Shown here piece after piece: positions 1,788-25,129 of a stretch of 25,129 nucleotides of DNA (positions are counted from its first letter, which is position 1; each line of letters starts with the position of its first letter). Made by a program: the position numbers and the translations under genes. The notes beneath the pieces are model-generated. The model had not been told where the DNA came from, ran no database searches, and saw only the letters and a list, made by a program, of their open reading frames with translations. This DNA is from a virus: positions 1 to 25,129 of IMG/VR virus record IMGVR_UViG_3300044522_000764; one strand, given 5' to 3'.

Positions 1788-2798
1788 ATGGCAGCTACAA
1801 GCATACTCACAATCAAAGGTCAGAAAGAAGACCTCTCCGACGCAATGGTCCTCATCGAGCCAGGCGATACACCCCTTTTCTCGATGTGCAAAAAATCCAA
1901 AGAACCAACCAACGTGTTGTTCTCTTGGCCCGCCGATAAATACAACGACCCGCAGACCGCAGGCGTGATGGCGAACGACGATGTGACAACCTTCGACGAC
2001 GAGCACGCTAACCGCGAACTCCTCTCGGGCCGCATCCAAAAAGTGCGCCGTTCCTTCCAGGTCGATGACCTCGTTGAGAATGTCGCCGACGTGGCTGGAG
2101 TTGGCCGCAAGCAGGCTTTCAATAAATCCGCCGCCAAAGCTCTTGTGGAGCTGAAGATCGACATCGAGGCTATCCTCGGTTCCGATAACGATTCCCAAGT
2201 GGCGACCGGCTCTGTCCCTTACAAGACTCGCGGTGTCGGAAGCTGGATCGCTAGTGGCGCTCAAGCCGATACAGCGACAGCAGTTCCTGCTACCTTCCGC
2301 ACCCCAGCGGCCTCGATCAACGCGACTGCGACTGCTTCCCTCACAGAAGCTAACGTGATCGACGTGATGGAGAGCATCTTCAAGGTCCGCCGCGCTCGTC
2401 GCAACTACGACCTCGTTTGTGGCACTAGCCTCAAGCGTGCCTTCACGAACTTTATCCGCACCCAAACTGGCTCGACCAACGTCATGTCCAGCGTGCGCAC
2501 GTTCAATACGAACCTCGAGAGCAAGAAGATCGTGAACACGATCGACATCTACGAGTCCGACTTCGGTACGGTCTCCCTGCACGTCTCGACCTACCTGGCG
2601 AATGGTGCGGCCGCAGCGGTCTCCGCTGCCCGTGGCTATGTGCTCGACATGGATCTGGTCTCGATCGGGTTCAACCGCAAGCCTCGTATGGAAGAGCTCG
2701 AAGACCGTGGCGGTGGACGCCGTGGATTCTGCGACGCCATCTTTGGCGTGGCGGTGAGCAATCCTTCTGTGCTCGGCAAGTTCGCAGCGACGACTTAA
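1788..2798 (+). CDS. Major capsid protein, SU10-type HK97 fold
   Basis: A 336-residue protein that forms the icosahedral head. The N-terminal pattern (GQKEDLSDAMVLIEPGDTPL at about residues 11-30), a central helix-rich region (LVENVADVAGVGRKQAFNKS), the IDVMESIFKVRRARRNYDLV segment and the C-terminal LDMDLVSIGFNRKPRMEELE segment match the SU10 major capsid family (formerly DUF5309). Length is in the usual range. The leader contains TAACCCCCC and AATAACATT but no Shine-Dalgarno sequence. A strong terminator starts 15 bases after the stop, which would cap an abundant capsid transcript. A long antisense frame across this gene is a codon-bias shadow. Confidence 0.88.
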   Translation: MAATSILTIKGQKEDLSDAMVLIEPGDTPLFSMCKKSKEPTNVLFSWPADKYNDPQTAGVMANDDVTTFDDEHANRELLSGRIQKVRRSFQVDDLVENVADVAGVGRKQAFNKSAAKALVELKIDIEAILGSDNDSQVATGSVPYKTRGVGSWIASGAQADTATAVPATFRTPAASINATATASLTEANVIDVMESIFKVRRARRNYDLVCGTSLKRAFTNFIRTQTGSTNVMSSVRTFNTNLESKKIVNTIDIYESDFGTVSLHVSTYLANGAAAAVSAARGYVLDMDLVSIGFNRKPRMEELEDRGGGRRGFCDAIFGVAVSNPSVLGKFAATT

Positions 2799-11559: not shown

Positions 11560-13638
11560 ATGCCCGATGACCAAACCATAGTAGAAGGAGATGCCGGATT
11601 CATCGGCATGGCGTCGCGCCTCAACCCGCTCCAGCTCCCGCCAGGGATGGTGCAGTACTCCGAAAATATGCGCCTCGACCGAGGTGTGGCGCAGACGCGC
11701 AAGGGCGCGAAGCGGGTGGCTGAGAATATCAACCCTGCGGTGGATACGTTGCTGTTGAATTTCACGCTCGGGACGAACCGATCTATTGCCGCTCTCACTC
11801 AGGTCGGAGGGTTGGCTACAGCAACCTTTGCCGCACCGCATGGATTTTCCAATTTAAGCTGGGTCAATATCAACGGAGCGACAGCCAGCGAATACAATGG
11901 GGACTTTCAAATCGCCGTGGTTTCCACAACGCAGATCACATTTTCCGTAGTCTCAGGCGCGCCTGGCTCCGCAGGCGGATCGCCTACCGCTAACAACGGG
12001 CCTCTCGTTAAGACGACCTATGGCGGCGACATAATCCAGAGCGGCATCTACTCGTCGCCGCGATTTGACAATGCGCGGGAATACATAGTGCTGGCCGCGC
12101 CGTCCGAGGCTTACTTGTGGCGACATGATGCGGCGACCGTGGAGGAGGTGGCCTACCCGCTCGGAGACACGATGGAGAACGGGGATGATGTCGAGATCGT
12201 GCAGGCTTTTGACAAGCTCTACCTACTACGCACAAGGCCGTCCGATCTCGCGCACCGAGTGGTATCCGTCTCAAATACCAGCAGCACCGCACTGGTGACG
12301 ATGGCTGCCGCTCATGGATACAAGACGGGGGATGTGGTGCGGATCAGCGAATCGGAAACTCTGGGATTCAATGGCGACTTTGAAGTGACCAAGGTGAGCG
12401 CAACCGAGTTCAGCTACACGCTGCCGGTCTCGGTGACTGCCGTCTCTGCCGTTGGTAAAATCTTCGCCCGCCGAGTGCTTCCGGCTTTAGTGTGGGACGG
12501 AGATTTGGTGAATAATTTCGTGCGTGTGGAGCAAGGGGCGCACCCGCTGGGGCTCACCTACTCGCGTCTGCCGAGCACAAGCATTGCCGCCTACCACAAC
12601 AATCAACTCGTCATTGCCCGCAACCGCGACGAGGTGCTGGTGAGCGATGTCTTTGATGCCGAGACTTACGACCCAGTGAGTAAGGCGTTTCGGGCCAATG
12701 CGGGGTCGAATGATTTTATTGTGGGGCTGCACCCATTCAGCGAGTCGCAGATTTTAGTTTTTTGCCGCAAGAGCATCTGGCTGGCCACGGCGATCATCGG
12801 CAACGATGGCACTTCGATAGATCCGGCGGCATCGAGCTTGCAACTACTGACCAATGAGATCGGGTGCAGTGCTCGCCGCACCATCACGACAGCGGGAACG
12901 GCGGTGCTCTTCCTGAGCGACCGAGGCGTTTACCGGCTGGATAGCCAGTTCGACCTTAAGCTGCGGGGGAACACGATGCCTCTAAGCGACCCGATCAGTG
13001 ATCTGGTGGCGACTATCAATAACAGCGCCGTCGAGTTGTCTAATGCGGTGTATTTCGACAACCGCTATTTCTTGGCGGTGCCAACTGGCCAGAGCACAAT
13101 TCCCAATGCGGTCTTCATCTACAACATGCTCAACGCGCAGTGGGAAACAAAGGATGTTTTTCCATTCGGGGTTGACCGATTGCTGGTGAGCGACTACGGC
13201 ACACAGCGCCGTCTCTTTGCCAGCTCGCGATACGGCAACCTCTATCTTGTTGACGAAAATGAGGACGGCAAGGACGACGGGGCTTTTGGCAGCAACCAGA
13301 CGGATGTGACCGGCGAACTCTTAACTCGTCGCTACGGTTGGGGATCTCTCAACTCCAAGCGCCTGCTGCGAGTCAAGGCCAGCACGGTTCTCCCCGCAGG
13401 GGGCGCGTGCGCTCTTGATGCGGTGACGACGGATTTCGACAATGACTTTGTCATCTCCGCTCTCAGCAATGCAACCGGAGCCACCGAGGACTACACGCTC
13501 AAAACGCCGCTGCGCTGCAAAGCCACGGCGCTCGACCTCCGCTACCGCACCACGGCTGGCCGCCCAATCCTACGACAAATCACCGCCGAGGCCGCTCTCT
13601 CTGGCCCTGCGAGCTCCGAAACCCGAACTTTGAATTAG
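11560..13638 (+). CDS. Tail nozzle or stabilisation protein, beta-propeller-like
   Basis: A 692-residue tail protein. The N-terminus (MASRLNPLQLPPGMVQYSEN, then RLDRGVAQTRKGAKRV) has the Leu-Pro-Pro-Gly-Met, Asn-x-Arg-x-Asp-x-Gly, Arg-x-Gly pattern of podovirus tail hub or nozzle proteins (P22 gp10-like and T7 tail tubular B-like). The body shows propeller-like blades: PALVWDG, VIARNRDEVLVSDVFDAETY, RKSIWLATA, SDRGVYRLD and GNLYLVDENEDGK. Two similar inserts, at about residues 83-130 and 235-300 (APHGF and AAHGY, then Asn-Gly-Asp-Phe, then Thr-x-Phe-x-x), resemble the E1 FCCH-type domain seen in phage tail proteins. The leader has the promoter-like motif and no Shine-Dalgarno sequence. Confidence 0.7.
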   Translation: MPDDQTIVEGDAGFIGMASRLNPLQLPPGMVQYSENMRLDRGVAQTRKGAKRVAENINPAVDTLLLNFTLGTNRSIAALTQVGGLATATFAAPHGFSNLSWVNINGATASEYNGDFQIAVVSTTQITFSVVSGAPGSAGGSPTANNGPLVKTTYGGDIIQSGIYSSPRFDNAREYIVLAAPSEAYLWRHDAATVEEVAYPLGDTMENGDDVEIVQAFDKLYLLRTRPSDLAHRVVSVSNTSSTALVTMAAAHGYKTGDVVRISESETLGFNGDFEVTKVSATEFSYTLPVSVTAVSAVGKIFARRVLPALVWDGDLVNNFVRVEQGAHPLGLTYSRLPSTSIAAYHNNQLVIARNRDEVLVSDVFDAETYDPVSKAFRANAGSNDFIVGLHPFSESQILVFCRKSIWLATAIIGNDGTSIDPAASSLQLLTNEIGCSARRTITTAGTAVLFLSDRGVYRLDSQFDLKLRGNTMPLSDPISDLVATINNSAVELSNAVYFDNRYFLAVPTGQSTIPNAVFIYNMLNAQWETKDVFPFGVDRLLVSDYGTQRRLFASSRYGNLYLVDENEDGKDDGAFGSNQTDVTGELLTRRYGWGSLNSKRLLRVKASTVLPAGGACALDAVTTDFDNDFVISALSNATGATEDYTLKTPLRCKATALDLRYRTTAGRPILRQITAEAALSGPASSETRTLN

Positions 13639-15027: not shown

Positions 15028-15393
15028 ATGACCCCCTTCGACAAAGCCATCGCTTGGCAGCGCGAGCACAGCACCGAGTCCTTCGAGGAGATCCTCGGTT
15101 GGCACCTCGGGCATGGCCTTGTCTACAGCACGCCAACAACATTCCTCCTCGCTCACGAAACCCACTACGACCCCGATACAAACGATATGAACTACGACTC
15201 CCCCCCGAATGCCTGGTTCGTCCAGCTCGCCGCCTCGGTCGGCCACGCGAACCCCGTCCGCGAATTTCTCCGCGTCGCCACGCACCCCCAAGAGTGGGCC
15301 ATCTGGCACCGCCGCAATTCCTTCGAGCCCCACGCCTACCTCTGGCACAAACTCGCCCGCCGCGTTGGTCTCGTTGAAGGGAGGGTGTCCTAA
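15028..15393 (+). CDS. Uncharacterised small phage protein, His/Trp-rich
   Basis: A 121-residue protein with a good Shine-Dalgarno sequence. Seen: TPFDKAIAWQREHSTESFEE, then ILGWHLGHGLVYSTPTTFLL and HETHYD. The C-terminal part has PNAWFVQLAASVGHA, PQEWAIWHRRNSFEPHAYLW and HKLARRVG. Similar proteins (Ser-Thr-Pro after a hydrophobic Tyr-Val, then conserved Trp residues) occur near tail genes in other phages, to my recollection, but no function is known to me. The many His and Trp residues could form a metal or ligand site, which is conjecture. The stop overlaps the following start by one base (TAATG). Confidence 0.68.
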   Translation: MTPFDKAIAWQREHSTESFEEILGWHLGHGLVYSTPTTFLLAHETHYDPDTNDMNYDSPPNAWFVQLAASVGHANPVREFLRVATHPQEWAIWHRRNSFEPHAYLWHKLARRVGLVEGRVS

Positions 15394-16568
15394 TGGGTGG
15401 TTCTTCAGCACAAAAGCCCAAGGAACAAGCCGCTCCTCCCCAAGCGCAGCCGATCGACTACGGCAAGATGATGCGCGAATCCAGCGGTGCTGCTAAAGAG
15501 CAATACCGTGACCAACTCAAAGCCCAAATTGAAACGTATCCTCAAATGGAACGCCTCCAACTTGGCGCGATCAGTAAACTTTCCGATAGCCTGTCTGGCA
15601 ACAACAACGCCTACACCCGCCGCGCCACCGACCAACTCATTGCCGCCGAAGGCCAAGTCGCCGCGCTCGGAACTATCGGCGACTACACGGAGCAGCTCGG
15701 CTACAAGGCCGCAGAAGATCTGCAAGGTACTGGCATCGAGAAAGAACTCCAACGTCAAGCCGAGAGCGATCTCGCTCTGGGGCGAAGCCTGAGTCCAGCG
15801 GAGGCCCGTGCCGCAACACAACAAGCCCGCGCTGGCATGTCTGCCCGTGGACTCGGAGCAGGCACAGGCGCACTCGCGGCCGAGGTGCTCAACCGCGACG
15901 CCTTCGCCAGCCAGCGCGAAGCCGACCGCCGCAACTTCGCAGGCTCCACAAACCAACTCCTCGTCTCCAACCGGCAAAACCGCATCGGCCAAGTCGGCAA
16001 CATCCTCGGCCAATCCGCCAACACCAGGATGAACCAAGCCAACCTCCGCAGCAGCCTCGCCGGAGCTAACATCACCATCGACCCCTACGCCCGCGCCATG
16101 AACCCCGCCCTCGGCATGGGGGCCAGCACCCTCGGCCAAAGCGGCCAGATGATCGGCAATACCTACAACAACGCCAACCAAATGGCCGGAAATGTCGCCG
16201 GAGTCAACGCCTCCATGCTCGATTCCCGCTGGAACACGGTGCAAAACAACAACGCCTCTCTCCAGAGCGCCTACATGGGAGCTAAGGCCAGCGACAACGC
16301 CGCGAATATGGGCCTCCAGGGAGCAGCCATGGGAGCCAGCGCCGTCATAGGAGCCGCAGCTGCCGCCTGCTGGGTAGCCCGCGCCGCATTCGGCACGGCC
16401 ACTACTCGTTGGATGGAATACCGCCGCGCCATGCTCCGCCATGCCAGCGACCGCACGATCCGCCTCTACTGCCAGCACGGCCAATCCATCGCCGCCGCCA
16501 TCACCACCCCCGTCCGCAGATTAATTACCCGATGCCTACTACGTTCGCTGGAACTCGCTTGGAAGTAA
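15393..16568 (+). CDS. Internal virion protein with a C-terminal CFI-box-like domain
   Basis: A 391-residue, mostly helical, Ala/Gln/Asn-rich protein. Residues 20-300 resemble phage internal or ejected virion proteins (AEARAATQQARAGMSARGLG, then READRRNFAGSTNQLLVSNR). A Gly/Ala-rich hydrophobic segment (about 309-325) leads into CWVARAAFGTATTRWMEYRR at Cys326 and continues with LYCQHGQSIAAAI. This resembles the CFI-box C-terminal domain and the Cys-Trp-Val-Ala-Arg ends of other phage virion proteins: Cys, aromatic, Ala-Tyr/Phe-Gly, Arg, Tyr, Ala-x-x-Ile. The function of that domain is unknown. The last 37 bases overlap the YcaO gene. It has a strong Shine-Dalgarno sequence. Confidence 0.68.
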   Translation: MGGSSAQKPKEQAAPPQAQPIDYGKMMRESSGAAKEQYRDQLKAQIETYPQMERLQLGAISKLSDSLSGNNNAYTRRATDQLIAAEGQVAALGTIGDYTEQLGYKAAEDLQGTGIEKELQRQAESDLALGRSLSPAEARAATQQARAGMSARGLGAGTGALAAEVLNRDAFASQREADRRNFAGSTNQLLVSNRQNRIGQVGNILGQSANTRMNQANLRSSLAGANITIDPYARAMNPALGMGASTLGQSGQMIGNTYNNANQMAGNVAGVNASMLDSRWNTVQNNNASLQSAYMGAKASDNAANMGLQGAAMGASAVIGAAAAACWVARAAFGTATTRWMEYRRAMLRHASDRTIRLYCQHGQSIAAAITTPVRRLITRCLLRSLELAWK

Positions 16569-17791
16569 CCAAGGTCCGCCTCGACGGAGCCCAACGCGCC
16601 TGCACACCCGAGCAGACGCTCGCTCGTATGCGCCCCCACTTCCACGCCGCAGGCATCACGCGCCTAGCGGAAGTCACCGGCCTCGACCGGATCGGTGTCT
16701 GTGTCGCCCAGTGCATACGACCCGACGCCATCGTGCTCGCGGTGGATAGCGGCAAAGGAGCTACTCCTGCCGCAGCGAAATGCTCGGCCATGATGGAGGG
16801 CTTCGAGCGCCATGTCGGGGAGACCGCTCCTGTGCGCTATATCATGGCTACCGCCGCGCAGCTCGGCGACGCTGCGGAGATCCGTCTACCGCTCCTCTCT
16901 GGAGCCGTCGTCGATCCCCACATCTCGCAACCTTGGGTGGAGGTCTATGGATTGCAAAGCGGAAAGGCCCGCTACGTCCCTGCGTGCGCGATCTCTCTCC
17001 AGGCACGGCACCCTGCCGGACTCCCGCTCGCGGCGACCCCGTGGGCCTCGACCTCGAACGGACTCTCTTCTGGCAATACCTATGCCGAGGCGGTGGCTGG
17101 CGGGCTCTACGAGTGCATCGAGCGAGATGCGACCGCTATCGCCCAGGGTAAAAATGCGGCGGCCTATTCTGCATCCGCGACTCTCTCCGATGGAATCGGC
17201 AGACCCTATGAGGGAGCTTGCGCCGCATCTCTCCGAGTGGACCTAGATACCGTGACAGACCGTACCGTCGCCCGCCTCGTCCGCGCCATCCGCGATGCCG
17301 ATGTGACTCCTATCCTCCTCGATGTCACCAGCGACATCGGGATCCCCACCTACATCTGCTACCTCATCGACTGCGAGAATGGACACGGTATCAATAAAGG
17401 CTATGCCGCACATCTCGACCCCGCCGTAGCCCAAGCCCGCGCCCTCACCGAGACCATCCAAGCTCGCGCGGTGTGGATCGCTGGCTCCCGCGACGATTTT
17501 CTCCACGAACGATTCGAGAAGGTGAAGGCGGCGGATAACTCCGCCATGCTGGCGCAACTCTACCGCCACCCGATCACGTCGGCCAACGCCCACGCCGACC
17601 GCTCCTGCGATACCTTCGATGCCGACATAGATACCCTCTGTGCCGCGCTCGATGCCGCAGGCATACCGGAGCCGCTCGTGTATGAGTTCGCCCACGACTA
17701 CCCCTGCTCCGTGGTGCGAGTAATCGTGCCTACTCTGGAGGGGTATAAATTTGACTATTCTCAGCGCGGACCCCGCGCCCGCCTCGTATGA
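16532..17791 (+). CDS. YcaO-family ATP-dependent backbone-amide-activating enzyme
   Basis: A 419-residue YcaO protein. Family enzymes use ATP to phosphorylate a peptide backbone amide so that a nucleophile can attack; with TfuA partners the product is a thioamide. ATP-site motifs look intact: SAMMEGFER at about 85-93 (Glu89, Glu92, Arg93), NGLSSGNTYAEAVAGGLYEC then IERDA at about 176-200, GIPTYICYLID at about 270-280, and YAAHLDPAVAQARALTETIQ at about 291-310 with Glu307, Gln310 and Arg312. The C-terminus (VVRVIVPTLEG, then GPRARLV) lacks the PxPxP end of azoline-forming YcaOs. The frame opens at 16409, but the ATG at 16532 is chosen, since the extension is Pro/His/Arg-rich shadow sequence. 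It overlaps TfuA by 4 bases. Confidence 0.92.
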   Translation: MPTTFAGTRLEVTKVRLDGAQRACTPEQTLARMRPHFHAAGITRLAEVTGLDRIGVCVAQCIRPDAIVLAVDSGKGATPAAAKCSAMMEGFERHVGETAPVRYIMATAAQLGDAAEIRLPLLSGAVVDPHISQPWVEVYGLQSGKARYVPACAISLQARHPAGLPLAATPWASTSNGLSSGNTYAEAVAGGLYECIERDATAIAQGKNAAAYSASATLSDGIGRPYEGACAASLRVDLDTVTDRTVARLVRAIRDADVTPILLDVTSDIGIPTYICYLIDCENGHGINKGYAAHLDPAVAQARALTETIQARAVWIAGSRDDFLHERFEKVKAADNSAMLAQLYRHPITSANAHADRSCDTFDADIDTLCAALDAAGIPEPLVYEFAHDYPCSVVRVIVPTLEGYKFDYSQRGPRARLV

Positions 17792-18804
17792 AAATCTTCC
17801 TCGGCCCCACACGCCCCAGCAACATCCCCGCCGATGCCGACCTACGGCCACCCGCCCAGCAAGGCGACATCGCCGCCGCTGCCACGGAGGGGCCGGATAC
17901 GCTCATCCTTATCGACGGACTCTTTCACCAAAGCCTCTCTCCCTGGCATAAGGAAATCCTCTTTGCCCTCGAGCGAGGGTGCCGAGTGATCGGGGCAGGA
18001 AGCCTCGGGGCGCTCCGTGCTGTGGAGTGCGCTCGCTACGGAGCTGAGCCTGTCGGAATCATCGCCGGTTGGTATGCCGACGAGTCTTGCACGGACGACG
18101 CCGATGTAGCCCTCGCCCACGGCCACGCCGAAGACGGCTACCGCGCCCTCTCCATTCCAATCGTCAACCTCCGCGCCACCGCCGAGTGCCTCGTCGCCGA
18201 CGGCCTCCTGCCAGCAGCCGACCTCGCAGGCATCCTCTCCCCCGCCCGCAGCATCTACTATGTCGAGCGCAGTTGGCCTCGCCTACGCCAAGCCCTCGGC
18301 CCCGTAGCAGACCTCCTCCGAGAGAACTACCGCGACCAGAAAGCCCTCGACGCCGAGGAAGCCATCCGCCACGCCCAGCATGTCGCCGCTCCCATCCAGC
18401 GCGACACTCCCCTCAACACGCACAGCGCCTATTTCCTCGCCCTCCTCGCCAACGACCTGCCAACTGGCGATGGCCAACGCCAGCACCACCTCACCAGCGA
18501 AGCCGACCGCACCCTCGCCACCGACCGCCACCTCGTCTCCGAGTTGGCCCAACTCCTCGGCATCGTCACCACCCCCGAAGACATCTTCGCCGCCAGCACC
18601 CGCATGTGGCAGCGCCTCGGCATCACGGACCCCACCGCCGCGCAAGCCTGGCTCACCGACCACGCCTGGACCGACCAGCAATGGTTCGCCCACGCCCAGC
18701 GCGAAGCCCTCCGCCAAGCCGCCCGCGATTGGCACGCCGCCACCGGAGCCTGCTTCGATACCGTCCCACTCACCCTCGCCCACAAACTCCTCAACCCCGC
18801 CTAA
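17788..18804 (+). CDS. TfuA-like protein, YcaO partner
   Basis: A 338-residue TfuA-family protein, coupled to YcaO by an ATGA overlap. The core is clear: LIDGLFHQSLSPWHKEILFA at about 41-60, ERGCRVIGAGSLGALRAVEC at about 62-81, then WYADESCTDDADVALAHGHA and EDGYRALSIPIVNLRATAEC at about 95-134. TfuA works with YcaO in thioamide formation (McrA thioglycine in methanogens, thioviridamide-type peptides), where it is thought to deliver sulfur. The remaining about 190 residues are helical and less conserved. Cys65, 81, 101 and 134 are candidates for sulfur handling, but that is conjecture. GC is high (about 63-72% in lines sampled by eye), above the gene that follows. It is followed by a CCCCCC tract and a virion gene. 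Confidence 0.92.
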   Translation: MKIFLGPTRPSNIPADADLRPPAQQGDIAAAATEGPDTLILIDGLFHQSLSPWHKEILFALERGCRVIGAGSLGALRAVECARYGAEPVGIIAGWYADESCTDDADVALAHGHAEDGYRALSIPIVNLRATAECLVADGLLPAADLAGILSPARSIYYVERSWPRLRQALGPVADLLRENYRDQKALDAEEAIRHAQHVAAPIQRDTPLNTHSAYFLALLANDLPTGDGQRQHHLTSEADRTLATDRHLVSELAQLLGIVTTPEDIFAASTRMWQRLGITDPTAAQAWLTDHAWTDQQWFAHAQREALRQAARDWHAATGACFDTVPLTLAHKLLNPA

Positions 18805-18810
18805 CCCCCC

Positions 18811-19419
18811 ATGCAATACGCCCCCGCCGTCACCGACCGCTCCGCCGAGATTTACGCCCAAGGTGCCAACAACGCCACCAACATCCGCGCCCAAGGCCAA
18901 GCCAACTTTCAGAATTCCCTCACCTCCTCATTCAATACCGCGATGGGAATGGTGAATAAACGCATAGAGAAGAATGAGACTGACAATGCCAAGCTCAAGC
19001 AGACAACAGCAACAGGGCAAGCCATGATGGGGCTTGCAGATAACTATGGTGAGGACGGGCAGAAATTTAAAGTCTCACTGGCAACAGCTCTTACAGATAA
19101 TGCTAAAGACCCTGACAAAATGGCAGGCACCGTCATGGCTTATGCAAATGAACTGGAGAATTTACAGAAGATCAAAACTGCCGAGAAAACCTACGAAGCC
19201 CTCGGCAATGCCTACGCAGGCAAAGCCCAAGCTGCCGCCGATGTGAAAGCGGCCCAGCCCCCCAAGATGAATGCCGAGACAATCCGCGCGTATGCTAACG
19301 ATGCCGCCACTAATGGGGCTACGCCTGATCAAATCAAGGCGGCTTTATTGCAAGGCTATGGATCATGGGCTGTCGATGCGGTTTACCCCCAGCCAAAGCA
19401 AAACTTTTGGGGGCCGTAG
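18811..19419 (+). CDS. Probable internal virion protein
   Basis: A 202-residue protein starting 6 bases after TfuA with the leader TAACCCCCC and no Shine-Dalgarno sequence. It is helical and Ala/Asn/Lys-rich (AEIYAQGANNATNIRAQGQA, then FQNSLTSSFNTAMGMVNKRI), with no Trp until near the end and a C-terminus of YGSWAVDAVYPQPKQNFWGP. The N-terminal Gln/Asn-rich helical style resembles small ejected virion proteins that sit between other internal proteins. GC falls sharply at about 18940, inside this gene (about 70% before, about 48% after by eye), which marks a recombination joint or a change of origin. No family recognised. Confidence 0.62.
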   Translation: MQYAPAVTDRSAEIYAQGANNATNIRAQGQANFQNSLTSSFNTAMGMVNKRIEKNETDNAKLKQTTATGQAMMGLADNYGEDGQKFKVSLATALTDNAKDPDKMAGTVMAYANELENLQKIKTAEKTYEALGNAYAGKAQAAADVKAAQPPKMNAETIRAYANDAATNGATPDQIKAALLQGYGSWAVDAVYPQPKQNFWGP

Positions 19420-19431: not shown

Positions 19432-22400
19432 ATGGCGCACAACCCCCTTCTGGACATCATCAATGCTGGCACCTCTACAGAGAGTCAGGGCATAGCGATA
19501 GATCAAGCTACTCCGCTGCCTAGCGACCCTGCGGATTGGACTCCATACCCGCAGAACGACATTATTGGTGAGCTAGATTCAATGGATTTAACTAGAGGGC
19601 AAACACCCCAAGATGAAATCCCTGATGCGCCGGAAGAATCTTCGGGGCCGATGCCGCGCCGCAATCCTCTGCTAGACATAATTAACGGTGGCGCTCCTGA
19701 GCCTACATTGAGGCGGGAGAATCCCTTGCTTGCGTTCATACGTCAGCAAGAGGCCGCCGCCCAGCAAGAGGCCGCCGCCACGCAGGAAGTGGTAGCGCAG
19801 GCAACGACTCCCGATGAGGCGCTGCCCGTCGTGTCGTCTAAGCTGGCCAACGCCCTCGGCGTGCTCGACTACCGCGACCCCGAGGAAGGCGCTCGCCGCT
19901 CGCAGGCCGCCGCCCTGGGAGAGATCCTAGGTCTGCCGGAATACGAGAGGGTCCAACTCGGAGCCGCCCCGACCAATGAGGATGGCACCGTGACCATCCG
20001 CCGCGCCCAAGCCGTGAGCCCCGAGGCGAATGCCGCCGCTGCTGTGAAGCTCCAAGCAGACCAAGCCGCTGCCGCCTCGCGCTACAAAGCCGAGCAAGAA
20101 TCCCTAGAGCCTTCTTTCTTTGAGAAGATCAAGCAACGCTGGAGCCTCGGCCGCGAGCAAGCCGTCGATGACCAGCTCGCCTACCGCGCGATGACGGGGG
20201 AGGTGGACTACGAGAAAGTCAAGGGTCAGCTCGACCCATCTACACGCCCGCTCAAGGGTGGCAACTGGCTCTCCGAAGGCGTGCTCACCGCCTCGCAAAT
20301 GCTGCCCGCCATGGTCGATGGCATCATCTCTGGCAATAAGCTCGGACTGCAAGGCGCTATGGCTGGAGGCTCCGCCGCCGCTATCGCAGGACAAGTCGGG
20401 CCTCAAGTGGTCACGCCCGAAGAGATCGTGACCGTGCCCGCTGCCGCCGCTCTCGGCTACACCGCAGGCACCGCTGCGGGAAGTGCAGAGTATTGGTATA
20501 AGCAAGGCGCGGGATCCATGTATCACGAACTCCGCAAGGAGGGGATACCTCATAATGTCGCCAGCACGGTCGCCGTCGGATTCGGAGCGCCGTATGCCGC
20601 TATCGAGCTTGCCCAAGTCAGCAAGCTCGTCCCTGGTGTGAAGCAAACCGCCGCGCAAGCCGTGGCCGGTGGCATCAAGTCCCGCCTCACCGCGCTCGCT
20701 AAGGAGAAAGGCGTCGAGTATGTCGAGCAGATCGGACAAGAGACCGCTCAAGAACTCCTCAGCATCTCCGGCGAGAAGCTCGCTGAGTGGTCGGCCGGAG
20801 TCACCCCGCCCAAGGATAAAGCCTCGGCGTGGGGTCGGATCGCAAATACCATCCAGCAAACGGCGACATCCATCCCTTTCCTTATGGCCCCCAAGGGAGC
20901 CCTCGATACCTACCAGACCGTGCGTGGCAACGAGCAAGCGCCACCCGCAGCGCCACCCGCAGCGCCACCCGCAGCGCCACCCGCGCAATCTCCAGAGCAA
21001 GCCCCTGCCGAAGTCCCTCAAAACTTCATCCCCATTTCCACCCCCGCCGCAGCGCAGCCAGCTACCCGCCCGCGCTCCCTCGGAGAAGTCCGCGCCCCAC
21101 AGATCGCCCTCGACCAAGCCGCCGTCGATGAAGCCTTCGGCTCCCCATTTGCGCCGCCGCCCGTGGTATCAAATGATACCTTCGCCCCGCCCGCGCCCGC
21201 CACCGAGTTACCAGAAACTTCCCGCACCGCCTCTGCTGCCCCCACGGTAAGCGCACCAACAGCGCCCGAATCGACGGGCTCACCCGAATTGATCAGCGGG
21301 GACGGGACTTCTGTTCTTTCCCCGAACGCCTCTACGGCCCGAGTCGCCGCAAGCGGAGCGCCGGAATTAACCGGCTCACCCGAGATGATCGCCGGAGAGG
21401 GGAGTTCTGTTTCTAATATTCCAGCATTGCAGCCCGTGGATTTTCCGGTCGATCAGATCAAGCTATCCAAAGACGTTCCCAACTTTAAGGATAATGCTGA
21501 TCCCAATACGGGAGTGGTGCAAGGCGAACGACTCGAAGGCCAAGTGGACCGCCGTGGCATGGCTCCGATCCTTGCATGGCGCAGACTCAATGGAGATGTC
21601 GAAGTCATCAGTGGTCGCCACCGGCTAGACCTATTCCGCCGCAATCAAGAGGGGTCAATACCTACCCAAATTTTCAATGAAGCTGATGGCTTCACCCGTG
21701 AAGATGCGCTAACCTTGGACGCAGAACTCAATATACGCGATGGACAAGGAACTACCAAAGACTATGCAAACTACTTCCGAAACGCCTCAATCTCCCATGA
21801 CCAAGCAACAGAGAGAAGCCTTCTTTCAAGGGCTAAGGGCCGTTCCGGCTTCACGATTGGAAACTTTGGGGCGGATGATCTCTACGCGGTACATCAATCC
21901 GGAAAACTCTCCGACGCCAAAGCCGAAGCCATAGCCGCCGCCGCTCCAGGGGATGCAGAGTTGCAGCATGTGGGCCTCACGTTTGCTAAAGACTTTAGTC
22001 CCGAAGCACTCACTCAACTCATCACCGTAAGCCAGCGCGCGAAGTCGCCAACCGCTAAGCAAGGCGATCTCTTTGGGAACTCCGACGAGAATCTGAATAA
22101 AGCCGTCGCCCTAGTAAAAGCTAGCCAGTCGAAAATTTCTGAAATCGACAACGCGATTCTTTCCGTGAAGGGGGCAGTAAAACGGCCTGATGCCGCTCGC
22201 AAAATGGGGGTCGATGTCAAAGACCCTGACTCGATTCGAAACAAGATCGAGCAACTCCAAACCCAGCGCGAAAAGTATGTCAACTTCCTCGACCACCCCG
22301 CCACGCTGGCAGAGGTGCGTGTATTAGCTTTTGGCGAAGAACAGGCACCGCTCTTTTCGCCCGCTCAAGAACCATTTAATCTCACGTCCGATCCCGTATC

Positions 22401-25129
22401 TTCCCCCGCTTCCTTGGATCCAGTGGATCAAGAGGCCGAGCGTGTCGCGGCTATCCGTAAATCTGGATACGATAATACCCCCTCGATGTTTGGCGAGGGG
22501 CCATCTCCGCGCCCAGATATTTCCCCTGCCGCCTCTGCTGCTGTGGCAGGGACATCTGTTCCGACTCCATTTGACTTTGAGCGAGCGTCGGTGTATGCAA
22601 AAGCAAGCGGAGCATATAATCTCCAAGACGCAACAAATGGAATATCCGGAACCCTGGCACAGATACGAGATGAAAGACTGGCCTCGCCTTACCAAAGCGA
22701 TTTCCAGACTCAACTCTTTGCGACGCAGGAAAGGGCTTCCGGTGATTCTTTCAACGGAGCCACCTCAAACAAATTGTCTCAGCCCGGACCCGGTGAGGTA
22801 TCTGAGCAAGATTACGACAGCCTCGTAGAAGAAGGTCTTCGAGGGGATTGGAAATCCCTTGCCGGAGCCGTAGCCATGCGGGGGCGAGCGTCCTCAATTT
22901 TGCCGGACTTGGTGGATGGGAAGCTGCCTGTTTGGAATATCGTTGGCACTCAAATCCTGACTCCTGCCGATCTTGCTGCTACGCTTTTGCCGTTGCGTTC
23001 GCCTTACATGGAGAGCGTCAAAGTCGCCGTGCTTGATTCCAAGAACCGCGTTGTCACAAGCGAAGTCGTCAGTATCGGCACGCTGAACTCCGCTGTGATG
23101 CACGCCCGTGAACTCACTCGTGCATTGGCTCGTATCAGGAAAAGCACCGGTAAAAATTTTGGGAAAATTGTTTTATCTCACAACCATCCCAGCGGCGATC
23201 CTTCCCCAAGCCAGGCGGATATAAATGTGACTCGAAACCTTGATGAAGCTGCAAAAGCTATGGGGTTTCATGTTGTTGATCACATCATCACAAACGGAAC
23301 AAAGTTTTATTCGTTCCGTGAAATGGGCCTCATAAACAGCAACTTTGAAGGCGACGAAACCTCTGCGGATTTTTCAGAAACACAATCTGCTCCGCAGTTC
23401 ACCCCATCCAAAGCTCATTGGGAGCGGGTCTTGCGCGATGAGCTTCCTTTCATGGATTCACCCGAGAAAGCCTCTTCGCTTTTATCGGTTTTGAAACAGG
23501 GGGACGCTAACGCCGGACACATTCTGTATCTCAATAGCAAGATGCGCCTGACGGCCGTGGAGCGGATACCGGACATTTCTTCTTATGCAAATGATTCGGA
23601 AAAATTAAAAATCCTTAAAAGGAAGATCATGGAAACAGCGTCTTTGGATGGCGCTTATGGGTTTATTTTTCAAACGCCAGAACAAGGGTTGCGCAATCCT
23701 AGATTGATGCGCGAGTTGCGCGAGTTTTCCAGCCAAACCAATTTGCCTCTTGTGGATTTTGCCACAACTGATCCAAACGATCCCAATTTATTTTACAGCT
23801 ACAAACAAGCGGGCCTCCTAGAAAAAGCAGGAAATTATCAAGCCAATTCGCTGGCTGAAGATGCTCCTGTTTTTGGCACGCCCAAATCCTCGGGATCAAA
23901 ACCCCGCAAGTTCACGCAATCCGTGCAATCCGCCGAAGGCGTCATGCCGGAGGTGAAGGCGCACCTCAACTCTTTTGAATACGATCCGGTCACTAATGCC
24001 GAGACCGTGGCTCAAGCCCGCGCCCGCATAGATGCCGCAGGGAGCATGGATGCCGCTTTTATTGCACTCATGGGCAAGACGGCAGCGCCAGCATGGCAAC
24101 CCTCCGCCGTGGACTACGCGACTGGCATGGAACTCATGTCGCAACTCCAAAACCGAGGCCGACATGAAGATGCTGGAGCTATCGCAAATATGATGGCCAC
24201 TCGCGCCACCGACCAAGGCCGAGCGATCCAAGCCCTCTCTATGATCTCCCGCCTCGGGCCGCAAGGCATCGAGATCTTCGCCCAACGCCAGCTCACGCAG
24301 GCCGCCACCTCGGGCAAGACAGACAAAGTGCGCACGACCATCCAAGCCAAGATCGACGAGGCCGACCAGCTCCGCACCGAAGTCACGAAGCTGCGCCACG
24401 ATGCCACGACCGCCGCCATCGTCGGCAATAAAGACCTCATCAAAGGCGAACTTCCTACCGGAGCTAACCCCGTGAAGGTGAACCTCGCTATCCGCGATGC
24501 CATCATGGGCTCGCCTACACCGCTCGCCGCCGAGGCCGCTATCCATGCGATCCTCACCGCCGAAGGGCTCTCGGATAAAGGGGCCGTGCGTATCAGCAAG
24601 AGCGTCGTGAAAGATTTCCTCAAGACCACACAGGATGCTCGCGCTAAAGTGCTCCAAGACCTACAAGCCGCCGCTGAGAATGACCGCCGCCTGGATAAAT
24701 CCAAACTCGGCGGGCTCATGCGACTCAACCGCGAGGGCAAGCTCACCGATGCCAGCCTGCACGCAGGCATGGCGAAGATGCTAGGCATCCCACATTGGGG
24801 AGCGGAGCAAAGCGCCAAGGTGCAACGCATCCTCGCGCAGCGCGACAAGGCTACCGATCCCCGTATCAAGCTCGTTAAGGGGGCCGAAGCCCTCGATGTC
24901 GTTTACCGTGAGTTCATGCCTCCTGGATTACTGGCTAAGATAGATACCTACCAGACGCTCTCGATGCTGCTCAATACGAAGACCGTCACCCGCAACGTGC
25001 TAGGCAACTCCATCATGTTCGGCGGCGATCTGGTGGCCGACTCCTTAGCTGTGCCGATGGATGCTGTGATGGGCCTCGCGACCGGAGAGCGCACGCGCAC
25101 GGGATTATCCCTCGGTCAACGTATCGTGG
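19432..25129 (+). CDS. Giant phage polyvalent protein, ParB-like and RadC/JAB domains; 3' end beyond window
   Basis: An uninterrupted frame of at least 1,899 residues, cut by the window end. In order: NPLLDII-type peptides at residues 4, 78 and 97; a Gly/Ala-rich, possibly membrane-active region at about 300-420; a Pro/Ala linker at about 503-525; a ParB-like domain at about 664-830 (VDFPVDQIKLSKD, then ISGRHRLDLFRRN); a RadC-type JAB domain at about 1180-1300 with HNHPSGDPSPSQAD (His1250, His1252, Asp1263); a second JAB-like domain at about 1326-1463 without these His residues; then a long helical region. Such multi-domain proteins are packaged in virions and injected with DNA to act on the host or protect the genome. 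It follows the smaller internal proteins. The C-terminal domains are unknown. Confidence 0.85.
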   Translation, partial: MAHNPLLDIINAGTSTESQGIAIDQATPLPSDPADWTPYPQNDIIGELDSMDLTRGQTPQDEIPDAPEESSGPMPRRNPLLDIINGGAPEPTLRRENPLLAFIRQQEAAAQQEAAATQEVVAQATTPDEALPVVSSKLANALGVLDYRDPEEGARRSQAAALGEILGLPEYERVQLGAAPTNEDGTVTIRRAQAVSPEANAAAAVKLQADQAAAASRYKAEQESLEPSFFEKIKQRWSLGREQAVDDQLAYRAMTGEVDYEKVKGQLDPSTRPLKGGNWLSEGVLTASQMLPAMVDGIISGNKLGLQGAMAGGSAAAIAGQVGPQVVTPEEIVTVPAAAALGYTAGTAAGSAEYWYKQGAGSMYHELRKEGIPHNVASTVAVGFGAPYAAIELAQVSKLVPGVKQTAAQAVAGGIKSRLTALAKEKGVEYVEQIGQETAQELLSISGEKLAEWSAGVTPPKDKASAWGRIANTIQQTATSIPFLMAPKGALDTYQTVRGNEQAPPAAPPAAPPAAPPAQSPEQAPAEVPQNFIPISTPAAAQPATRPRSLGEVRAPQIALDQAAVDEAFGSPFAPPPVVSNDTFAPPAPATELPETSRTASAAPTVSAPTAPESTGSPELISGDGTSVLSPNASTARVAASGAPELTGSPEMIAGEGSSVSNIPALQPVDFPVDQIKLSKDVPNFKDNADPNTGVVQGERLEGQVDRRGMAPILAWRRLNGDVEVISGRHRLDLFRRNQEGSIPTQIFNEADGFTREDALTLDAELNIRDGQGTTKDYANYFRNASISHDQATERSLLSRAKGRSGFTIGNFGADDLYAVHQSGKLSDAKAEAIAAAAPGDAELQHVGLTFAKDFSPEALTQLITVSQRAKSPTAKQGDLFGNSDENLNKAVALVKASQSKISEIDNAILSVKGAVKRPDAARKMGVDVKDPDSIRNKIEQLQTQREKYVNFLDHPATLAEVRVLAFGEEQAPLFSPAQEPFNLTSDPVSSPASLDPVDQEAERVAAIRKSGYDNTPSMFGEGPSPRPDISPAASAAVAGTSVPTPFDFERASVYAKASGAYNLQDATNGISGTLAQIRDERLASPYQSDFQTQLFATQERASGDSFNGATSNKLSQPGPGEVSEQDYDSLVEEGLRGDWKSLAGAVAMRGRASSILPDLVDGKLPVWNIVGTQILTPADLAATLLPLRSPYMESVKVAVLDSKNRVVTSEVVSIGTLNSAVMHARELTRALARIRKSTGKNFGKIVLSHNHPSGDPSPSQADINVTRNLDEAAKAMGFHVVDHIITNGTKFYSFREMGLINSNFEGDETSADFSETQSAPQFTPSKAHWERVLRDELPFMDSPEKASSLLSVLKQGDANAGHILYLNSKMRLTAVERIPDISSYANDSEKLKILKRKIMETASLDGAYGFIFQTPEQGLRNPRLMRELREFSSQTNLPLVDFATTDPNDPNLFYSYKQAGLLEKAGNYQANSLAEDAPVFGTPKSSGSKPRKFTQSVQSAEGVMPEVKAHLNSFEYDPVTNAETVAQARARIDAAGSMDAAFIALMGKTAAPAWQPSAVDYATGMELMSQLQNRGRHEDAGAIANMMATRATDQGRAIQALSMISRLGPQGIEIFAQRQLTQAATSGKTDKVRTTIQAKIDEADQLRTEVTKLRHDATTAAIVGNKDLIKGELPTGANPVKVNLAIRDAIMGSPTPLAAEAAIHAILTAEGLSDKGAVRISKSVVKDFLKTTQDARAKVLQDLQAAAENDRRLDKSKLGGLMRLNREGKLTDASLHAGMAKMLGIPHWGAEQSAKVQRILAQRDKATDPRIKLVKGAEALDVVYREFMPPGLLAKIDTYQTLSMLLNTKTVTRNVLGNSIMFGGDLVADSLAVPMDAVMGLATGERTRTGLSLGQRIV
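20938..20985 (+). repeat. Four 12-base tandem repeats (Ala-Pro-Pro-Ala)
   Basis: GCGCCACCCGCA occurs four times in a row, the last copy with one base changed, encoding Ala-Pro-Pro-Ala units. It forms the start of a Pro/Ala-rich linker that joins the Gly-rich N-terminal region of the polyvalent protein to its ParB-like domain. The length is probably variable by slippage. Confidence 0.85.
21268..21411 (+). repeat. Duplicated 16-codon segment in the polyvalent linker
   Basis: Codons at 21268-21315 (ESTGSPELISGDGTSV) and 21364-21411 (ELTGSPEMIAGEGSSV) are clear copies separated by 48 bases. DNA has diverged at many third positions, so the duplication is not recent. It lies just before the ParB-like domain. 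Confidence 0.75.

What the first reader, a model, noticed from the sequence alone, without database searches (positions are those of the whole stretch)
16532..18804. Complete YcaO-TfuA thioamidation-type pair inside a phage virion operon
Both proteins carry their family cores with ATP-site residues intact, are coupled by a 4-base overlap, and sit between internal virion genes on the same strand. YcaO-TfuA pairs are known for thioamide formation in McrA of methanogens and in certain ribosomally made peptides. I do not recall a characterised phage pair. Its place in the late block suggests modification of a virion protein, or of a host protein late in infection.
Basis: partly seen in the sequence, partly recalled or inferred. 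Interest (0 to 1): 0.92.

Follow-up and report, generated by a model that had tools for sequence, protein, structure and literature searches.

The report
Phage-encoded protein backbone thioamidation module
A family of uncultured bacterial viruses carries, among the genes for the proteins it probably injects with its DNA, an intact enzyme pair of the kind that swaps an oxygen for a sulfur in a protein backbone; I found no earlier report of this in a virus, and the likeliest target is one of the virus's own injected proteins.

Summary
YcaO (16532-17791; PF02624, E 3e-58) and TfuA (17788-18804; PF07812, E 6e-33) are intact, overlap by 4 bp and lie in a late gene block of an uncultured podovirus-like phage. 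The pair is not a stray: 81 further IMG/VR contigs carry the YcaO, and all 60 with enough downstream sequence carry a complete TfuA next to it, under purifying selection. In 14 contigs a ThiS-type sulfur carrier (C-terminal GG) is encoded with the pair. The nearest cellular relatives (Azospirillum) have YcaO-TfuA-ThiS-rhodanese/ThiF. This supports TfuA-type backbone thioamidation with sulfur relayed from the host. Nothing comparable was found in 50,697 GenBank phages, PHROGs, BFVD or the papers held. The pair entered phages at least twice, mostly at one junction inside the ejection-protein genes. In the main clade it travels with a replaced C-terminal 'CWVAR' domain of the protein encoded just upstream: that protein's body can be 98% identical to a phage without YcaO while domain and pair differ. 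That domain is the best substrate candidate, unproven: linkage alone could explain it, two lineages uncouple the two, and the domain is common in phages without YcaO. Chemistry about 85% likely; virion-protein substrate about 55-60%.

The parts
16532..17791 (+). YcaO enzyme, 419 aa (start ATG 16532, or TTG 16559 as in relatives)
   Evidence: PF02624 E 3.3e-58; ATP-site residues invariant or nearly so; fold = M. jannaschii YcaO 6peu
17788..18804 (+). TfuA, 338 aa, sulfide-delivering partner
   Evidence: PF07812 E 5.6e-33; phmmer to TfuA structure 6xp8 E 1.5e-20; 24 residues invariant across phage and cellular TfuA
15393..16568 (+). g19, MGG-starting protein of the probable ejection/internal virion block; best candidate substrate
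   Evidence: encoded immediately upstream of YcaO in nearly all relatives; no family match
16368..16565 (+). C-terminal CWVAR domain of g19 (CWVARAAFG...), predicted helical
   Evidence: travels with the pair; AF2 helices, pLDDT 68
18811..19419 (+). g22, second probable ejection protein, directly downstream of TfuA
   Evidence: same junction g19-g22 without insert in phages lacking YcaO
19432..25128 (+). giant protein (open at window end) with RadC-like JAB domain, third gene of the ejection block
   Evidence: PF04002 E 1.1e-29; syntenic giant protein in YcaO-less L222 matches 'DNA transfer protein' phrog_770
1788..2798 (+). major capsid protein, SU10 type (context)
   Evidence: PF17236 E 8e-41
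11560..13638 (+). head-closure Hc3-like protein (context)
   Evidence: 28% identity to head closure of Phage C75C1

Best explanation
The pair is a working ATP-dependent protein-backbone thioamidation module. By family mechanism, YcaO phosphorylates a chosen amide oxygen of its substrate, sulfide attacks and phosphate leaves, giving a thioamide (+16 Da). TfuA releases that sulfide from a thiocarboxylated ThiS-type carrier, which is phage-encoded in a sister clade and host-supplied here; the activating E1 and cysteine desulfurase come from the host. Expressed late with the ejection proteins, it most likely modifies a phage virion protein, first candidate the C-terminal CWVAR domain of the protein encoded just upstream (g19). 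The proposed effect, wholly inferred, is to stiffen or protect a segment of a protein that must cross or insert into the host envelope. Shown by sequence: both enzymes intact, co-inherited, under purifying selection; carrier in relatives; co-transfer with the upstream domain. Inferred: the reaction itself, the substrate and the benefit.
For: Family and fold matches, intact ATP site. TfuA complete in 60/60 testable relatives. dN/dS 0.03-0.29 for YcaO and 0.06-0.42 for TfuA. ThiS between YcaO and TfuA in 14 contigs, PF02597 over cut-off, ending AGG. Nearest cellular operons are YcaO-TfuA-ThiS-rhodanese/ThiF. Published role of TfuA and ThiS in thioamidation (PMC13063428, PMC8153245). No room for a precursor peptide between the genes. 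At least two phage acquisitions, mostly at the g19/g22 junction, which is normally empty in YcaO-less relatives. The g19 body tree needs 9 label changes (at least 6 forced), the C-terminal domain tree 3. L179 vs YcaO-less L216: body 98% identical over 256 aa, domain not alike. Matching breakpoints at nucleotide level. Motif after CWVAR is EV[YF]G in 25/25 YcaO-less but only 2/51 YcaO-adjacent domains; second scan: nonEV with YcaO 34, nonEV without 2, EV without 28, EV with 0.
Against: No biochemistry. The domain-pair association is confounded by physical linkage and shared ancestry. L045/L046 keep the pair away from the virion genes, and the L046 phage has an EVYG-type domain elsewhere; L174 and L207 have EVYG next to YcaO; the L186/L189/L190 phages have the pair but no CWVAR domain found. 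The domain is common in phages without YcaO (over 500 contigs carry it), so thioamidation is not needed for its basic role. The window contig is a fragment and shows no ThiS.
Confidence: 0.45

Rival explanations
1. Same thioamidation chemistry, but the substrate is a host protein (for example a ribosomal or translation protein, as uL16 for E. coli YcaO), changed late in infection for takeover, competitor exclusion or lysis timing.
For: Known YcaO target of this sort in bacteria (PMC13063428). The pair is portable between phage types and sits outside the virion block in L045/L046. YcaO-positive phage contigs of 41-47 kb without a CWVAR domain.
Against: Placement among late ejection-protein genes in two independent acquisitions. 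Not of the uL16 type: NF040716 37.9 bits against a cut-off of 700, and that type has no TfuA.
Confidence: 0.25
2. A compact RiPP-like system: the pair modifies a small peptide, encoded elsewhere in the phage or by the host, that acts as an antibacterial or signal.
For: Bacterial YcaO-TfuA pairs are known chiefly from thioamidated RiPP clusters (PMC8120280, PMC6511847).
Against: No precursor-sized gene between or beside the pair in the main clade: genes overlap or are 6 bp apart. The small genes seen in one subclade are ThiS and one unidentified protein of about 72 aa. No other RiPP tailoring gene seen in the window.
Confidence: 0.12
3. The pair is a neutral or selfish hitch-hiker (a moron) at a permissive site; the co-exchange of the g19 C-terminus is only linkage.
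For: Several phages lack the pair with otherwise near-identical neighbours. Two lineages uncouple pair and domain.
Against: Strong purifying selection and almost no decay over wide divergence. The junction is empty in most YcaO-less relatives, not a general hotspot. Deviation from EVYG also occurs in the second YcaO clade and in L145.
Confidence: 0.12
4. A YcaO with another backbone chemistry (azoline or amidine formation).
For: The YcaO family as a whole does this; TIGR03604 hit at 92.9 bits.
Against: Below the TIGR03604 cut-off (219); no ThiF/E1-type partner in 19 phage records; TfuA and ThiS point to sulfur; no C-terminal PxPxP in the sequence (a mark of azoline-forming YcaOs, from general knowledge).
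Confidence: 0.06

Closest known systems
Azospirillum YcaO-TfuA-ThiS-rhodanese/ThiF operon (L062 7962-12148)
   Same: Nearest cellular YcaO (39% identity) with adjacent TfuA (about 35%) and ThiS (about 30%)
   Different: Chromosomal; has its own ThiF/rhodanese activator; not in a phage; product not known to me
McrA-glycine thioamidation YcaO-TfuA of methanogens (TIGR03266, NF033432; eLife 2017, PMC5589413)
   Same: Same pair and fold; modifies a large protein rather than a peptide
   Different: Scores well below both equivalog cut-offs (182/365 and 124/235 bits); its substrate McrA is an enzyme of methanogenic archaea; TfuA here is longer than the archaeal one
Thioamitide RiPP pairs (TsaH/TsaI, thioviridamide type; PMC8153245)
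   Same: YcaO and TfuA proteins, both needed for thioamides
   Different: No precursor peptide or other tailoring genes beside the phage pair
E. coli YcaO acting on uL16 (PMC13063428)
   Same: YcaO thioamidating a protein of a large assembly
   Different: No TfuA partner there; different YcaO group (NF040716 37.9/700 bits)
Phages with CWVAR-domain ejection-type proteins but no YcaO (for example L216, L222; HMO-2011)
   Same: Same g19-g22-giant gene block in L216/L222, up to 98% identical g19 body
   Different: EVYG-type C-terminal domain and no enzyme pair

Membership tests
YcaO superfamily (PF02624) | Full-length profile match above curated cut-off | tested here: met
   198 bits vs 25.7, positions 1-325/325
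YcaO superfamily (PF02624) | Conserved ATP/Mg site motifs | tested here: met
   S73GKG76, E89, E92, N176, E194, E197, R303, E307, Q310, R312 invariant in 24 phage sequences
YcaO superfamily (PF02624) | YcaO fold | tested here: met
   6peu E 4e-23, TM 0.75/0.81
TfuA (PF07812) | Full-length profile match above cut-off | tested here: met
   113.7 bits vs 30; 6xp8 match
TfuA-type thioamidation pair | YcaO and TfuA adjacent and co-inherited | tested here: met
   60 of 60 contigs with room
TfuA-type thioamidation pair | ThiS-type sulfur carrier available | tested here: inconclusive
   Encoded in 14 sister contigs; none seen in the window fragment; host carrier assumed
TfuA-type thioamidation pair | Forms a thioamide | not testable with these tools
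   needs mass spectrometry
McrA thioamidation equivalogs (TIGR03266, NF033432) | Score above equivalog cut-off | tested here: not met
   181.9 vs 365 and 124.5 vs 235.2 bits
Thioamidated RiPP cluster | Precursor peptide gene beside the pair | tested here: not met
   genes overlap or abut; no small conserved ORF in the main clade
uL16-type YcaO (NF040716) | Score above cut-off | tested here: not met
   37.9 vs 700 bits
Azoline-forming YcaO (TIGR03604) | Score above cut-off and E1/ThiF-like partner | tested here: not met
   92.9 vs 219 bits; no ThiF in 19 phage records

The most novel reading that the evidence does not exclude
A phage lineage installs backbone thioamides in its own virion: YcaO-TfuA (with a phage ThiS in one clade) modifies the C-terminal domain of a DNA-ejection protein, and enzyme and domain are exchanged between phages as one cassette. 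I know of no viral protein with a backbone thioamide.
Probability: 0.4. Interest if true: 0.93.

Novelty: new variant of a known kind. Interest (0 to 1): 0.82.

Why it matters
Backbone thioamides are known in a handful of proteins (McrA, uL16) and RiPPs. A conserved phage module would be, as far as I could find, the first in a virus. It would show a phage bringing its own sulfur-relay parts and would offer a small defined system for asking what a single O-to-S change does to a protein that must pass through a membrane. The natural with/without pairs of near-identical phages make the question directly testable.

Tried and rejected
(1) CWVAR domain as an obligatory substrate: rejected, because no such domain was found in YcaO-positive contigs L189 (47 kb) and L190 (41 kb), and hundreds of contigs carry the domain, most of those checked without YcaO. 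(2) N-terminal MGG of g19 as a YcaO-specific mark: rejected, also common in YcaO-less phages. (3) Phage-encoded E1 (ThiF): none in 19 records. (4) ThiS elsewhere in phages without the middle gene: none in the 25 other records of 31. (5) Host assignment: the scan of GTDB species genomes found no phage-type YcaO above 39% identity, so no prophage or contaminant names a host. (6) Defence annotation: no PADLOC hit for the pair. (7) The first CWVAR comparison was biased towards EVYG by its query, so it was repeated with the window domain as first sequence. (8) A first alignment of L045/L046 'capsid' was wrong (it was the scaffold) and is not used; the comparisons with the window picked a wrong ORF and are not used.

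Full report
What is there. The window is a 25,129-base virus record. The two genes are as described: YcaO at 16532-17791 and TfuA at 17788-18804, overlapping by four bases. Pfam gives PF02624 over its whole length (E 3.3e-58) and PF07812 over its whole length (E 5.6e-33). NCBIfam gives the McrA thioamidation models TIGR03266 and NF033432 as best hits, but far below their equivalog cut-offs. So the pair is related to, but is not, the McrA type. An AF2 model (pLDDT 78.7, pTM 0.85) matches M. jannaschii YcaO with peptide, E 4e-23. YcaO ATP-site residues are invariant or nearly so in 24 phage sequences. The start of YcaO may be TTG 16559, the codon aligned with the start in relatives, rather than ATG 16532.

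Setting. The late block runs scaffold, SU10-type capsid, portal-like, tail and fibre genes, endolysin, head closure, fibre, g18, g19, YcaO, TfuA, g22 and a giant protein with a RadC-like domain. Phages without YcaO show the same order, g19-type, g22-type, giant, with nothing between the first two in nearly all cases. The syntenic giant of one of them matches a 'DNA transfer protein'. I read g19, g22 and the giant as ejection or internal virion proteins; that is inference from synteny and this one match.

Spread. Close-relative and profile scans of IMG/VR and one domain scan gave 81 contigs with this YcaO besides the window. Of 60 contigs with room after YcaO, all 60 hold a complete TfuA next to it; one YcaO is truncated (L196). 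Pairwise dN/dS is 0.03-0.42. None was found in 50,697 GenBank phage records, in PHROGs or as a fold in BFVD. The paper library gave no phage YcaO-TfuA; it holds open-licence papers only.

Chemistry. In 14 sister contigs a gene of 88 codons stands between YcaO and TfuA; it is a ThiS-family carrier with a C-terminal Gly-Gly (PF02597 E 5e-9 to 8e-8, above cut-off). No ThiF was found in 19 phage records. The nearest cellular pairs, in Azospirillum, sit in an operon YcaO-TfuA-ThiS-rhodanese/ThiF. Published work holds that TfuA hydrolyses thiocarboxylated ThiS to give sulfide to YcaO (cited in PMC13063428 and PMC8153245). The phage set thus has the parts expected for thioamidation, with activation left to the host. 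I rate this chemistry at about 0.85.

History. In a tree of 74 YcaOs the phage ones form two groups, with Azospirillum and other cellular YcaOs between: at least two acquisitions. Both groups hold the pair directly downstream of a g19-type gene. Exceptions: L045/L046 carry it on the strand opposite to capsid, portal and terminase, with replication genes nearby; L186/L189/L190 carry it after a g19-type protein that lacks the C-terminal domain.

The upstream domain. g19-type proteins end in a 65-85-residue domain beginning CWVAR. It is common in phages: over 500 contigs, but only one phage type in GenBank was found with it (HMO-2011), and it matches no Pfam family. The g19 body and this domain have different histories. 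On the body tree the label 'YcaO next door' needs 9 changes (at least 6 forced by well-supported branches); on the domain tree 3, and all 28 main-clade YcaO-adjacent domains form one clade, 100/99 (the two trees do not hold exactly the same rows). L179 (with YcaO) and L216 (without) share a body 98% identical over 256 residues while their domains are not alike. At nucleotide level the identity of L175, L179 and L180 to L216 stops at L216 2934-2936, about 30 codons before CWVAR; in L175 it resumes at the g19 stop/g22 start. YcaO-less domains read CWVAREV[YF]G in 25/25 distinct cases; YcaO-adjacent ones in 2/51. A second scan, started from the window's own domain to undo bias, gave nonEV with YcaO 34, nonEV without 2, EV without 28, EV with 0. 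Domain and pair therefore move together. Functional coupling (the domain is substrate or docking site) explains this, including the deviation seen in the second YcaO clade; plain linkage explains much of it too. The uncoupled lineages show that the domain cannot be the only possible substrate.

Judgement. Thioamidation module: about 0.85. A phage virion protein as substrate: about 0.55-0.6, with the g19 C-terminal domain the single best candidate (about 0.4). Host protein 0.25, small peptide 0.12. The host is unknown: the species-genome scan found no phage-type YcaO above 39% identity.

Noticed in passing
window 16368-16565; L199-L244 and L285-L324: A C-terminal domain starting CWVAR(EVYG) on g19-type phage proteins occurs in more than 500 IMG/VR contigs but has no Pfam model and one GenBank phage type (HMO-2011); widespread unnamed phage domain.
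   Followed up: partly
L019 5188-5410; L034, L049, L053 equivalents: A further gene of about 72 aa between YcaO and ThiS (MTPQLIAYPPTHETTYHYRIDGIEHLSPCDVR...), no family match; possible extra partner of the sulfur relay.
   Followed up: no
L251, L266, L269, L272: Four IMG/VR contigs end exactly at the g19 stop codon, just where YcaO would start; perhaps virus/host boundary trimming that treats YcaO-TfuA as host genes, which would hide the pair in virus catalogues.
   Followed up: no
window 19432-25128 (about aa 1190-1300): RadC-like JAB domain inside the giant probable ejection protein (PF04002 E 1e-29).
   Followed up: no
L062 7005-7832: Upstream of the Azospirillum YcaO lies a strongly repetitive stretch (repeats such as ASAFSAAAQSASAVPAPAFSAVAAP in one frame, partly masked): possible repeat-type substrate.
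   Followed up: no
window 16532-18804 against L001, L002, L007: Mosaic pair: YcaO is 99% identical to L001 but TfuA 81%, while TfuA is 91% identical to L007 but YcaO 75%; the two genes have recombined within the group yet both persist.
   Followed up: no
L196 2230-3141: The only truncated YcaO (213 codons to the stop from the best match) beside an intact TfuA; nature of the lesion not examined.
   Followed up: no
L141 (Phage C75C1) 20149-22830: Nearest GenBank phage by capsid lacks the pair but carries an annotated gamma-glutamyl cyclotransferase and an amidoligase.
   Followed up: no
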